Below are positions 11,178 to 18,092 of a DNA stretch of 28,851 bases, in pieces (the stretch's first letter is position 1; each line of letters starts with the position of its first letter). This stretch comes from a virus: IMG/VR virus record IMGVR_UViG_3300027759_000327, positions 1 through 28,851 of that record, one strand, 5' to 3'. The notes beneath the pieces were generated by a model. That model searched no databases, was not told where the DNA came from, and worked only from the letters and a program-made list of their open reading frames with translations. Position numbers and translations under genes: made by a program.

Positions 11178-12176
11178 ATGAACTACGAACAACTGCGTGA
11201 ACTTGTTGGTGGCAGTAATCCTAAAGATATTTCTTATCAGGACATTATTTCTGGTATTCAAAGCCAATACGCACCACAGTTGAAGTCTTTGCCTACAAGG
11301 TCATTGCTAGACTATATTGGTGCTTTAGTGCCTGACCAACCAAGAATTGCTTATGGTTCTTTGTTGCAAGCACAACCTAGAAAATTACCAGAGCCTTTTG
11401 ATATTACTAAATACACAACTAAGACTGAAGGCGATACATCTACAACTACTGGTCTTACTGGTGGTGATAGTGGTGGCGATGGCGGTAATGTTGGAACTAC
11501 TGGAAACTCAGGGATTACTGTAAATGCTGATGGTACTGTTACGGCAAACACAGTAAACCAAGGTCTAGCATCAGTTGTTGGGATGGTTACTGGTTTACCA
11601 CTTGGATTGGTTGCGTCAATAACAAATGCAATAAATAATGCTACAGCCAATACTGCTAACGCAGCGATTACACAAGCAGACGTAGATAGCATAGCTACTA
11701 CTGGTAATACAGCAACTGCTGGCGCAACAGGTACAGGCGCAGCAGCCGCAGCAGCAGGAACGGCAGCAGCAGCAGCAGCAAGTGCAGCAGGAATGTCAGA
11801 TGCAGCCGCAGCAGCCGCAGGTCAAGCAGCAGCAAGTGCTACTGTAGGTGGCGCTTCTCCAGCCGCAGCAGCATCGGCAGCAGCCGCAGCAGCCGCAGCA
11901 GCCGATAGTGCAGGTAATAGTGGAATTGCAGGGGATACAGGGCCTAGCGGAATTGGTGATGGCGTTGGTGATGGAACTGCTTTTGCTAAAGGCGGTTTAG
12001 TTACCATGAACAGATTGATGGGTTCTAATCCAGTTGGTCAAGACGATGGTTATGCCTCATTGCAGTCTGGTGAGTATGTCATTAAGAAAAATGCTGTAGA
12101 TAAGTATGGTGAAGAATTCCTTGGGTTGCTTAACTCTGGAAAACTTACAAAGAAACAAATTAAATCTCTTTTATGA
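11178..12176 (+). CDS. Ala-rich virion protein with conserved C-terminal motif
   Basis: The 332-residue product has an ordered N-terminus (to about 70), a Gly/Thr linker, a hydrophobic Gly/Ala helix region (130-160) and an almost pure alanine tract at about 186-245. The C-terminal 60 residues contain K-G-G-L-V, Q-D-D-G-Y-A-S-L-Q-S-G-E-Y-V-I-K-K-N-A-V and G-x-x-F-L-xx-L-N. This ending is shared by many phage virion proteins, including some tape-measure and internal proteins, where it may be a targeting or assembly signal. It is probably a minor head or ejection protein. The stop overlaps the next ATG as ATGA. Confidence 0.6.
   Translation: MNYEQLRELVGGSNPKDISYQDIISGIQSQYAPQLKSLPTRSLLDYIGALVPDQPRIAYGSLLQAQPRKLPEPFDITKYTTKTEGDTSTTTGLTGGDSGGDGGNVGTTGNSGITVNADGTVTANTVNQGLASVVGMVTGLPLGLVASITNAINNATANTANAAITQADVDSIATTGNTATAGATGTGAAAAAAGTAAAAAASAAGMSDAAAAAAGQAAASATVGGASPAAAASAAAAAAAAADSAGNSGIAGDTGPSGIGDGVGDGTAFAKGGLVTMNRLMGSNPVGQDDGYASLQSGEYVIKKNAVDKYGEEFLGLLNSGKLTKKQIKSLL
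11738..11907 (+). repeat. GCN (Ala-codon) trinucleotide repeat tract
   Basis: About 170 bases consist largely of GCA and GCC triplets in frame with the host gene, encoding the alanine tract. Similar GCA/GCC mixes recur with small interruptions, so slippage-driven length change is likely. It is the lowest-complexity DNA in the window. Confidence 0.8.
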
Positions 12177-14433: not shown

Positions 14434-14748
14434 ATGCAAAACCCTGTCAAATTTAGAGATTCTGTAGTCCATGCTGATGGCGAGGGCGGTATTGTTATTG
14501 AGACTAAACAAGACATTACAGGAATCATTGAGCAGAACAAAAAGGAATATAACTCCTTTGATGAACGTGCTAAATGGTCTGATGAGTTGTTTGGTAATAA
14601 GATAGCGTCTATTCCGTTTACAGTTATTGATGAACTCAATAAACAAGGCGTTATGCGTGGCTTTGATGTGATTGATGAGAAAAGATTTAAAGCGTGGTTA
14701 AACGAGCGTGATAACAGAGTTTTTAGAACTCGGACAGGAGTTGTATGA
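14434..14748 (+). CDS. Small head-tail region protein
   Basis: The 104-residue product has E-Q-N-K-K-x-Y-N-S-F-D-E-R-A-K-W, a central I-A-S-I-P-F-T-V-I-D-E-L and an ending F-K-A-W-L-N-E-R-D-N-R-V-F-R-T-R-T-G. These features recur in a small protein encoded between the capsid and adaptor genes in SU10/T7-like environmental phages; its role is unassigned, but head completion fits the position. There is no Shine-Dalgarno sequence, and the candidate promoter lies so close that initiation would be leaderless. The last bases overlap the adaptor start by four (ATGA). Confidence 0.7.
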   Translation: MQNPVKFRDSVVHADGEGGIVIETKQDITGIIEQNKKEYNSFDERAKWSDELFGNKIASIPFTVIDELNKQGVMRGFDVIDEKRFKAWLNERDNRVFRTRTGVV

Positions 14749-15365
14749 GTTTTGCTACCTACTCTGATTTACAGACTTCAATAGCCAATTATTTGGCTAG
14801 GTCTGACTTGACAAGCATCATCCCAGACTTTATTACTTTGGCTGAGAATCGTTTGCGTAGAGAACTGCGTATTCGTCAAATGCTTAAATCTGTTACAACT
14901 TTAACTGTCAAAGCTGATGCAACTGTAGAAGTACCTAGCGACTTCTTAGAGATTCGTGACTTTGTTGTGATGACAAACCCAATAACTCCATTGAGTTACT
15001 CTAGTCCTTCATCGTTATCCAATGACCCAAGAACATCAGAAGTTGGTGTTCCAAGGTCTTACACTATTCTTGCTTCTGAGTTTCAGTTAGCACCTTCCCC
15101 TGATGCTGTTTATACGTTAAAGATGCTTTATTACGCTGCGCCAGCATACTTGTCTAGCAGTAACACATCTAACGTATTTCTGACTACAGCCCCTGATGGC
15201 TTACTTTACGCTTCTTTGATTGAAGCTGAGCCTTATCTAATGAACGATGCTCGTATTAACACATGGGGAACTATGTACGATAGAGCAATTTCTTCTCTCA
15301 CCAAGTCTGATGAAAGCACTCAATACTCTGGTGTACCCCTGTCAATAAAATTAACATCAAGGTGA
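14745..15365 (+). CDS. Head-tail adaptor protein (SU10 adaptor type)
   Basis: This 206-residue protein begins S-F-A-T-Y-S-D-L-Q-T-S-I-A-N-Y-L-A-R-S-D and continues with I-I-P-D-F-I-T-L-A-E-N-R-L-R-R-E-L-R-I-R-Q-M, the conserved helical part of the SU10-type adaptor family. A middle section of strands (V-E-V-P-S-D-F-L-E-I) and a final four-helix region complete it. Adaptors dock on the portal ring after packaging, lock the DNA in and form the platform for the nozzle. Length and order with its neighbours are normal. Confidence 0.85.
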   Translation: MSFATYSDLQTSIANYLARSDLTSIIPDFITLAENRLRRELRIRQMLKSVTTLTVKADATVEVPSDFLEIRDFVVMTNPITPLSYSSPSSLSNDPRTSEVGVPRSYTILASEFQLAPSPDAVYTLKMLYYAAPAYLSSSNTSNVFLTTAPDGLLYASLIEAEPYLMNDARINTWGTMYDRAISSLTKSDESTQYSGVPLSIKLTSR

Positions 15366-15369
15366 AATC

Positions 15370-15756
15370 ATGGCTGAAATGTCTAACTACTTGGAAAATG
15401 CTCTTATCAATGTGACGTTGAGAGCAACTGCTTACACAGCACCAACAACTGTGTATCTTGCTTTATACACAACTGACCCAACTGATGCTGATACTGGTAC
15501 TGAATGTTCTGGTACTAGCTATGCTCGTCAAGCTGTAACTTTTGGTGCGCCTAGCAATGGTGCTTCTACAAATTCTGCTGCTATTGAGTTTCCTCAAGCT
15601 GGTGGCTCATGGGGAACAATTACCCACATTGGAATCCGTGATGCTTTGACTACAGGTAACTTGCTGTATCACTCACCACTAGACGCTTCTAAGACGATTG
15701 CAACTGGTGATGTGTTCCGTGTCGCTTCTGGTTCATTGAGCGTTACTTTGGCGTGA
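15370..15756 (+). CDS. Small conserved tail/virion protein
   Basis: The 128-residue product carries M-S-N-Y-L-E-N-A-L-I-N-V-T-L-R-A-T-A-Y and V-Y-L-A-L-Y-T-T-D-P-T-D-A-D-T-G-T-E, then Y-A-R-Q-A-V-T-F and a strand-rich end with I-T-H-I-G-I-R-D-A. This is a widely found small phage protein encoded among tail genes, often labelled tail fibre or tail component. It appears all-beta and may form a ring or fibre base. It stands just before the repeat protein, which begins one base after its stop, so the two are likely translated together and may interact. Confidence 0.7.
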   Translation: MAEMSNYLENALINVTLRATAYTAPTTVYLALYTTDPTDADTGTECSGTSYARQAVTFGAPSNGASTNSAAIEFPQAGGSWGTITHIGIRDALTTGNLLYHSPLDASKTIATGDVFRVASGSLSVTLA

Positions 15757-15757
15757 G

Positions 15758-16648
15758 ATGGCTGATTTACTGCCTCCGTGGACGATTGACTCGCTAGACA
15801 ATTTAAAGTCTAGCATTGATGACTTAACACTCACACTTGATAGTCCACTTTATACAACATCTGTAACCCTATGGGATGCCTATGGGTCTGTAACTGCGTC
15901 TGCAAGCGTTACAGCAGATGGCACAAGGGTTCAGAGTGGTAGTGGGGCAGTAGATGGTACAGCGACAGTAGTAGCAGACGCTATAAGGGTACAGTTAGCT
16001 AGCGCAAGTATTACTGTTAATACTGGTGTAGTTTGTGATGCAACGAGGGTGCAGTTTGGCTCTGGTGCTATTGATGGCAATGCTACTGTTACTGCTGATG
16101 CTGTTCGTGTCCAGTTTGCTAGTGGAAATATTACCGCTAATGCAGATGTAATAGCTACTGGAACTCGTGTCCAGTTTGGTATTGCAGATATAACTGGAAA
16201 TGCTACTGTTACGGCTCTTGGTGGAATCGTAGCAAATGCAGTAGCTTCTGTAACGGCTAATGCGACTGTAACGGCTGATGCTATTAGAGTGCAACTAGCA
16301 AGTGGTTCAGTTACTGGTAACGCAACAGTAGTAGCTAATGGTGGTTTGATTGTAGGTGCTGTAGCAAGCATAAACGCAAATGCTAATGTTGTCGCTAGTG
16401 CGTCTGCAATTTATGCAGGGGTAGCCTCGGTATCAGGTCTAGCAACAGTTACGGCTAAAGGTGTAAGGTTAGGTGATAACTGGACTTCAGTACCAGAAGA
16501 CACAAATACTTGGACACCAGTTTCTACAAATGGTAACAATTGGACTGTTGTTTCTAGTGATTCAAACACATGGACTCCAGTATCTGCTAATGACAATACA
16601 TGGACAATTCAGGCTCAAGGGTCAAATACATGGTTGAGACAAGGTTAA
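15758..16648 (+). CDS. Periodic beta-repeat virion protein (20- and 10-residue repeats)
   Basis: The 296-residue protein is almost fully repetitive. After a 40-residue N-terminus, residues 41-240 form ten copies of exactly 20 residues, with a core like G-N-A-T-V-T-A-D-A-x-R-V-Q and then A-S-G-x-I. Residues 241-296 are about 5.6 copies of a 10-residue unit with Trp at 242, 252, 262, 272, 282 and 292 (N-T-W-T-P-V-S-x-N-x). Strict periodicity suggests a beta-solenoid or a trimeric beta fibre, with the Trp part forming a second segment. It lies between a small tail protein and the nozzle-like gene, so it is probably a tail spike, fibre or capsid decoration. No known family was recognised. Confidence 0.65.
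   Translation: MADLLPPWTIDSLDNLKSSIDDLTLTLDSPLYTTSVTLWDAYGSVTASASVTADGTRVQSGSGAVDGTATVVADAIRVQLASASITVNTGVVCDATRVQFGSGAIDGNATVTADAVRVQFASGNITANADVIATGTRVQFGIADITGNATVTALGGIVANAVASVTANATVTADAIRVQLASGSVTGNATVVANGGLIVGAVASINANANVVASASAIYAGVASVSGLATVTAKGVRLGDNWTSVPEDTNTWTPVSTNGNNWTVVSSDSNTWTPVSANDNTWTIQAQGSNTWLRQG
15878..16477 (+). repeat. Ten 60-bp tandem coding repeats
   Basis: Residues 41-240 of the protein repeat every 20 residues without any indel, which is every 60 bases. The DNA copies have drifted: neighbouring units share the amino acid pattern more than the base sequence, so selection on the protein seems to hold the period. Confidence 0.8.
16478..16645 (+). repeat. About 5.6 30-bp tandem coding repeats with Trp
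   Basis: The C-terminal section repeats every 30 bases, each unit carrying a TGG codon preceded by an Asn or Thr codon (Trp at residue 242 and every tenth after). It abuts the 60-bp repeats without a gap. Confidence 0.8.
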
Positions 16649-16652
16649 GATA

Positions 16653-18092
16653 ATGGCTACACAACGAATAACACTTGGCGAATGGATGCCTGACCAAACA
16701 GGCTTATCTGGCTCATTGACAGACGCTAAAAATGTAGTGTCTCAAGCCATTGGGTACGGGCCACTCCCCTCGCCTGTATCATTTTCTAGTGCTGCTGCTG
16801 AAAACCTAACTTCTTTGTATGCTGGAAAAGCACCAGATGGCACTACATATTCATTTGCTGCTGGCGCATCCAAGATTTATACAGTTGGTTCATCTGGAAC
16901 ACTTACCCAAGTTAATACAGGTTTAACAACAGGCGCAAACGACAGAGTAAGGTTTACTCAGTTTGGTAAAACTGTTATTGCTTGTAATAACGCTGAAAAG
17001 CTAAAATCATGGGTGCTTGGAACGTCTAGCACTTTTTCTGATGTTGCAGCTAATGCGCCCATTGCTAAATTCATTACTGTAGTTCGTGATTTTGTGGTTT
17101 GTGCTAATACTTACGAAAGTTCTGTACAGCAACAATATCGTGTTCGTTGGTCAGCAATCAATGATGAAACAGATTGGACAGAGAATGTAAACACTCAGTC
17201 TGATTATCAGGACATTCCTGATGGTGGGCAGATTGTTGGAATCCGTGGTGGTGAGTTTGGTATAGTTCTGCTAGAGCGTTCAATATCTCGGATGACCTAT
17301 GTGGGTACTCCGTTTATCTTCCAGTTTGACAATATCTCTAGGAATAAAGGTTGCATGGTAGCTGGCTCAATTGCACAATACCAAGGTATAACTTTCTTTT
17401 TGTCAGATGATGGTTTCTATATGTGCGATGGACAGAATGTTGTTCCTATCGGTGCTGAGAAGATAGATAGATTCTTCCTTAGTGATGCTAGTGAGGCAGA
17501 CTATAAAACAATGTCTGCCACTATTGACCCTGTTCGCAAATTAGTAATTTGGAATTACAAATCAGTTGATGCAAATCGTAAGTTAATAATTTACAACTTT
17601 GCAACTAAGAAGTGGACTTATGCAGATGCAAATACTGATTACTTGGGTGAAGTCTCATCAGGCGCATTAACGCTAGAAGATTTAGATGCTATCTCAGGAA
17701 GCATTGACGCTTTGACAACAAGTTTAGATTCTTTGCTATTTATTGGCGGTAAATATTTCTTAGGTGGAACTTACGGAACTAAAGTTTACACATTTACTGG
17801 TGCAAATCTTACAGGGAATATTTCAACTGGAGATATAGATATAGGGGCTAACTCAGTAGTAACTCTAGCTAGACCTATTGTTGACAATGGTTCTGGTTCT
17901 ATTTCGATAGCTTCTCGTCAACTGTTAAATCAATCTGTCATTTATGGAACTTCTGTAGCAGCCGACTCTGATAACAGAGTTTCTTTGCGTAGTGCTGGTA
18001 GATACCATAGATTAAATCTAGTTCCTACTGGCTCTAACTGGAAAACTGCTGTTGCTGTGGATGTGGATATTACGCCACAAGGGGTTCGCTGA
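16653..18092 (+). CDS. Tail nozzle / DNA-stabilisation-like protein
   Basis: This 479-residue protein consists of repeated strand-rich blades (A-P-D-G-T-T-Y-S-F-A, R-V-R-F-T-Q-F-G-K-T-V-I-A, the R-W-S-A-I-N-D-E-T-D-W segment, G-G-E-F-G-I-V-L-L-E-R), fitting a beta-propeller as in P22 gp10-like and SU10 nozzle proteins. The C-terminus G-R-Y-H-R-L-N...V-D-V-D-I-T-P-Q-G-V-R is a typical ending for that group. A helix-like segment at 343-363 (with S-I-D-A-L-T-T-S-L-D-S) resembles one in the repeat protein encoded before it. It would extend the adaptor and plug the DNA channel. It shares one base with the next gene (TGATG). Confidence 0.7.
   Translation: MATQRITLGEWMPDQTGLSGSLTDAKNVVSQAIGYGPLPSPVSFSSAAAENLTSLYAGKAPDGTTYSFAAGASKIYTVGSSGTLTQVNTGLTTGANDRVRFTQFGKTVIACNNAEKLKSWVLGTSSTFSDVAANAPIAKFITVVRDFVVCANTYESSVQQQYRVRWSAINDETDWTENVNTQSDYQDIPDGGQIVGIRGGEFGIVLLERSISRMTYVGTPFIFQFDNISRNKGCMVAGSIAQYQGITFFLSDDGFYMCDGQNVVPIGAEKIDRFFLSDASEADYKTMSATIDPVRKLVIWNYKSVDANRKLIIYNFATKKWTYADANTDYLGEVSSGALTLEDLDAISGSIDALTTSLDSLLFIGGKYFLGGTYGTKVYTFTGANLTGNISTGDIDIGANSVVTLARPIVDNGSGSISIASRQLLNQSVIYGTSVAADSDNRVSLRSAGRYHRLNLVPTGSNWKTAVAVDVDITPQGVR

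What the first reader, a model, noticed from the sequence alone, without database searches (positions are those of the whole stretch)
15878..16645. Indel-free 10 x 20-residue then ~6 x 10-residue repeat protein
Counting residues shows an exact period of 20 from residue 41 to 240 and an exact period of 10 from 241 on, with Trp every tenth residue. The switch from 20 to 10 halves the period, so the Trp part may be one layer of the same geometry. Such regularity suggests a fibre or solenoid with measured length. I know no named family for it.
Basis: seen in the sequence. Interest (0 to 1): 0.65.

Follow-up and report, generated by a model that had tools for sequence, protein, structure and literature searches.

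The report
Twenty-residue-repeat rope of phage tail fibre
A phage gene encodes a rope-like protein of ten 20-residue units that probably strings together copies of the neighbouring gene's bead protein into a tail fibre, and the same bead-plus-20-residue-repeat gene pair turns up in many unrelated phages.

Summary
ORF 15758-16648 (+, 296 aa) has ten gap-free 20-residue units (residues 41-240; 43% identity at lag 20, never reached in 10,000 shuffles), then Trp decapeptides (Trp 242, 252 ... 292). Relatives number in the hundreds. In the window's own type the array has 10, 9 or 6 units, and Trp units number 2, 4 or 6 across the wider family.

The best explanation comes from the neighbour. The gene just upstream belongs to PF23140 (Podophage GP4 fiber I protein gp80; PDB 8jou_a). 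Among 227 relatives both genes are present (156) or both absent (71), never one alone, but this rests on only two independent changes. In loci seeded by three divergent gp80 proteins, the next gene downstream has a best period of exactly 20 in 28 of 81, against 3 of 147 upstream genes (p = 1e-11). These proteins fall into about 18 groups without detectable sequence similarity.

I conclude that this is a rope on which gp80-type beads assemble, about one 20-residue unit per bead subunit. It is probably not a free-standing solenoid: monomer models are poor (pLDDT 40, 48). Repeat-bead contact is inferred, not shown. GP4's rope protein is recalled from memory; I could not read that paper.

The parts
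15758..16648 (+). rope-like repeat protein, 296 aa
   Evidence: ORF list and translation; periodicity; more than 300 relatives in IMG/VR
15758..15877 (+). N-terminal 40 residues, probable anchor; swapped for unrelated N-termini in Venkman-type and C72C1-type relatives
15782..15853 (+). 24-residue motif TIDSLDNLKSSIDDLTLTLDSPLY (residues 9-32), similar to a segment of the nozzle protein
   Evidence: tblastn E = 0.001, 58% over 24 residues, against the nozzle gene of MW202710; the nozzle segment is conserved also in phages without the rope
15878..16477 (+). ten 20-residue units (residues 41-240)
   Evidence: unit consensus
16478..16645 (+). Trp decapeptides (residues 241-296), six Trp spaced by 10
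   Evidence: spacing across 230 distinct relatives
15370..15756 (+). gp80-type protein (PF23140), 128 aa, proposed bead that assembles on the rope
   Evidence: Pfam E = 4e-52; PDB 8jou_a E = 3e-14, 10 chains; co-presence with the rope
14745..15365 (+). head-tail adaptor-like protein (phrog_2941), upstream border of the two-gene cassette
16653..18092 (+). nozzle / stabilisation protein, downstream border of the cassette
   Evidence: phrog_3287; PDB 9nwi, 8zkk and 8zkm nozzle-type chains
17670..17741 (+). nozzle segment TLEDLDAISGSIDALTTSLDSLLF resembling the N-terminus of the rope

Best explanation
The protein is the scaffold ('rope') of a two-component tail fibre. The gp80-type protein encoded just upstream is the bead. 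Each 20-residue unit offers one binding register, most likely a beta-strand pair, to one bead subunit, so the number of units sets how many beads are strung and hence the fibre length. The N-terminal 40 residues, and probably the Trp decapeptides at the other end, anchor the rope to the tail or to another fibre part. Shown: the repeats, copy-number change in 20-residue steps, exact pairing of the two genes, and the recurrence of 20-residue-period proteins directly after gp80-type genes in unrelated phages. Inferred: that beads bind the repeats, the one-unit-per-subunit stoichiometry, and the anchoring roles of the two ends.
For: The upstream gene is PF23140, 'Podophage GP4 fiber I protein gp80' (E = 4e-52), and matches PDB 8jou_a, which has 10 chains. 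The two genes are adjacent in 110 of 118 window-type, 39 of 39 L082-type and 50 of 50 C72C1-type loci. Between adaptor and nozzle both are present in 156 loci, both absent in 71, one alone in none of 227; MW202710, whose nozzle is 71% identical, has lost or never had both. In 92 non-redundant loci seeded by three divergent gp80 proteins (Burkholderia JC1, Mycobacterium Archie, Sporosarcina Lietuvens), the +1 gene has best lag exactly 20 with shuffle p <= 0.01 in 28 of 81 (window-like loci removed), against 3 of 147 upstream genes, Fisher p = 1.3e-11. Those proteins form about 18 groups without BLAST similarity and carry different non-repeat parts, which points to selection by the shared partner. 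Best lag is also 20 in the gene after gp80 in BcepIL02, POI1126, PBC5, MEP401/402, phiM5 and others. Array length changes at least 6 times, by whole units, on a nozzle tree of the window's clade. Poor monomer models fit a protein that folds only on a partner. From memory, not read here: Zheng et al. 2023 (doi 10.1016/j.jmb.2023.168258) describe GP4 fiber I as gp80 dimers linked by an elongated rope protein.
Against: The co-presence rests on only 2 independent changes on the tree. About half of the gp80 loci show no 20-period protein within three genes downstream (46 of 86 do), and in Venkman-type phages other fibre genes separate the two. Virion evidence is mixed: BcepIL02 gp56 is annotated virion-associated, but JC1 gp54 was not among the proteins found by mass spectrometry (PMC9144972) and phiM5_18 lacks the proteome note that its neighbours carry. 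Low model confidence can also simply reflect a shallow, low-complexity alignment.
Confidence: 0.62

Rival explanations
1. A free-standing beta-solenoid or intertwined homotrimeric fibre: one coil or layer per 20 residues, with the Trp part as a shorter cap, and gp80 only as a neighbour.
For: Exact gap-free period and alternating small/hydrophobic strand pattern; two to three strands per unit in the models; copy number changes by whole units. A homotrimer would also give a poor monomer model.
Against: Monomer pLDDT 40 and 48; beta-solenoids of this regularity usually model better than that. It does not explain why dissimilar 20-residue arrays recur directly after gp80-type genes.
Confidence: 0.2
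2. A flexible tether that holds other tail fibres or spikes at a set distance, independent of gp80.
For: In Venkman-type phages several fibre genes lie between gp80 and the rope; similar arrays are fused to glycine-rich minor tail proteins and to DUF2313-like tail proteins.
Against: In most relatives gp80 is the immediate neighbour, and the two are never found apart between adaptor and nozzle.
Confidence: 0.1
3. An adhesin or receptor-binding protein, as the database label 'serine-rich adhesin' says.
For: Annotation of three relatives and the location among tail genes.
Against: The label looks compositional; Pfam gives no adhesin domain; the repeat array evolves slowly (59-82% identity between orthologous units), unlike a host-range domain.
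Confidence: 0.05

Closest known systems
Fiber I of Ralstonia podophage GP4 (gp80 beads on a rope protein; PDB 8JOU)
   Same: Same bead family (PF23140; 8jou_a) encoded directly upstream, in the adaptor-nozzle part of a podophage genome.
   Different: The window has Trp decapeptides that the Burkholderia positional relatives lack, and has no homologue of the small 8jou_D protein between rope and nozzle.
Lessievirus rope-position proteins (Burkholderia BcepIL02 gp56, JC1 gp54)
   Same: Gene directly after gp80; best periodicity lag 20; BcepIL02 gp56 annotated virion-associated.
   Different: Different repeat sequence, different N- and C-termini, no Trp decapeptides; the JC1 periodicity alone is weak (p = 0.08).
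Methylophilales phage Venkman gp51 and Zobellviridae MEP401/402 repeat proteins
   Same: 20-residue arrays; Venkman is a clear homologue with Trp decapeptides.
   Different: Other N-terminal anchors; other fibre genes in between (Venkman); a different C-terminus in MEP401/402.

Membership tests
GP4-type fiber I (gp80 beads on a rope) | gp80-family bead protein present | tested here: met
   PF23140 E = 4e-52; 8jou_a E = 2.7e-14
GP4-type fiber I (gp80 beads on a rope) | rope gene next to and co-inherited with the gp80 gene | tested here: met
   adjacency; 156 both, 71 neither, 0 single, but only two independent changes
GP4-type fiber I (gp80 beads on a rope) | rope homologous to the GP4 rope protein | not testable with these tools
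   GP4 record not held; no rope chain found in PDB by profile
GP4-type fiber I (gp80 beads on a rope) | bead subunits physically bound along the rope | not testable with these tools
autonomous beta-solenoid | confident solenoid model of the single chain | tested here: not met
   pLDDT 40 and 48
PF23140 (gp80) itself | Pfam match of the repeat protein | tested here: not met
   only the upstream gene matches; the repeat protein has no relevant family hit

The most novel reading that the evidence does not exclude
A widespread phage fibre architecture in which a disposable rope of 20-residue units templates a countable number of gp80-type beads: unit number is a genetic ruler for fibre length, and the 20-residue period is imposed by the bead, so that sequence-unrelated ropes converge on it in podo-, sipho- and myophage-type genomes.
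Probability: 0.45. Interest if true: 0.72.

Novelty: new variant of a known kind. Interest (0 to 1): 0.55.

Why it matters
If true, a simple rule (PF23140 gene followed by a 20-residue-period protein) would identify a two-component fibre in many phages whose repeat proteins are now hypothetical or mislabelled as adhesins, and would allow fibre length or bead number to be predicted from sequence. It would also explain how sequence-unrelated repeat proteins share one exact period. This makes a direct test of a length-encoding ruler in phage tails possible.

Tried and rejected
Tandem DNA repeat or recent duplication: rejected, TRF finds nothing there. Pfam hits to ProQ_C and ribosomal proteins: rejected as compositional. 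PDB hits 6xxe, 4opw, 3ljy and 7tfm: weak and compositional. A general 40-residue (dimer) super-period: lag 40 exceeds lag 20 in some groups only. A strict law of even Trp number: holds in the window's wider family (2, 4 or 6; 7 in one group whose extra Trp lies in an insert; two apparent singles are a missed first Trp), but phiM5_18, ctjtQ328 and L447 show three by eye. AlphaFold2 of the rope alone: two poor models, so no structure search was run. Bacterial genome contigs: no relative, so no host from that source. The GP4 paper itself is not held, and the paper searches found no text on its rope protein.

Full report
OBSERVATION. The reported stretch is residues 41-296 of a 296-residue ORF at 15758-16648 on the + strand. 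Residues 41-240 form ten 20-residue units without gaps; identity at lag 20 is 0.43 against 0.04 and 0.06 at lags 19 and 21, and none of 10,000 shuffles reaches it. Residues 241-296 have a 10-residue period with Trp at 242, 252, 262, 272, 282 and 292. The period is a protein-level feature: Tandem Repeats Finder sees nothing there.

RELATIVES. IMG/VR holds at least 310 relatives of the window protein. I collected 291 complete family members, 230 of them distinct. In the window's N-terminal type the first Trp lies at residue 242, 222 or 162 (10, 9 or 6 units), with one- or two-residue slips seen where the 20-mers meet the Trp part; Venkman-type proteins behave alike with another N-terminus. On a nozzle-protein tree of the window's clade the unit number changed at least 6 times and the Trp number at least 3 times, always by whole 20-residue steps. 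Trp units number 2, 4 or 6 in this family (one group has a seventh Trp inside an insert). Orthologous units are 59-82% identical between phages while units within the consensus protein are 47% identical, so the array is old and not homogenised.

NEIGHBOURHOOD. Order in the window: terminase, portal, scaffold, major capsid protein, adaptor-like protein, gp80-type protein, repeat protein, nozzle-type protein, ejection-type protein, further virion genes and an S74 tail fibre. The gene just upstream is PF23140, 'Podophage GP4 fiber I protein gp80', and matches 8jou_a. It is adjacent to the repeat gene in most relatives. In loci where the adaptor-nozzle interval could be read, gp80 and repeat gene are both present in 156 and both absent in 71; none of 227 has one alone. 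The tree gives only two independent changes, so this is strong pairing but few events.

TEST OUTSIDE THE FAMILY. If the repeats exist for gp80, distant gp80 genes should have 20-residue-period neighbours. I fetched loci with three divergent gp80 proteins. In 92 non-redundant loci the gene immediately downstream has a best lag of exactly 20 (lags 15-30 scanned, shuffle p <= 0.01) in 28 of 81 after removing two window-like loci, against 1 of 75 and 2 of 72 for the two upstream genes; Fisher p = 1.3e-11. The positive proteins (30 including the two window-like ones) fall into 18 groups without BLAST similarity, while all their gp80 proteins join in one group. The arrays sit in different contexts: short proteins with Trp decapeptides, long glycine-rich minor tail proteins, and DUF2313-type tail proteins. 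Named phages give the same picture. About half of the gp80 loci show no such protein within three genes, so the rule is not universal.

MECHANISM. I propose that the repeat protein is a rope along which gp80-type beads are strung, about one unit per bead subunit, with unit number setting fibre length. The steps shown are repeats, stepwise copy-number change, pairing and recurrence; bead binding and stoichiometry are inferred. Ten gp80 chains in 8JOU against ten units here is suggestive only, since the phages differ. The N-terminal segment resembles a conserved nozzle segment (24 residues, 58%, E = 0.001), which hints at docking on the tail. AlphaFold2 gave poor models for the chain alone, consistent with partner-dependent folding or with an uninformative alignment.

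KNOWN WORK. I recall that Zheng et al. 2023 (J Mol Biol, GP4) describe fiber I as gp80 dimers linked by an elongated rope protein; the paper is not held here. [quoted passage not shown] I take chain g to be a gp80 copy, which was not checked. I found no text describing a 20-residue repeat linked to gp80, within an open-access library only.

Noticed in passing
11178-12173: 332-aa ORF with a long Ala/Gly-rich low-complexity middle (GCA/CAG-type triplets around 11739-11904) and a C-terminal stretch matching tape-measure PHROG profiles.
   Followed up: partly
17670-17741: Nozzle segment resembling the N-terminus of the repeat protein; conserved even in phages without the repeat gene.
   Followed up: partly
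L426, L428, L433: About five 20-residue units just downstream of a gp80-type gene, fused to what looks like a DUF2313-type tail protein (the named phage Lietuvens has DUF2313 at that position), suggesting that the array can be grafted onto myophage-type tail proteins.
   Followed up: partly
L085/L504 (MW202710): A close relative of the window (nozzle 71% identical, capsid protein 77%) lacks both gp80 and the repeat gene; adaptor and nozzle are nearly contiguous.
   Followed up: yes
L152, L153: Group with N-terminus YWEYGYAEG whose Trp part carries an insert that repeats a similar aromatic motif (FGYWELGYTDE).
   Followed up: no
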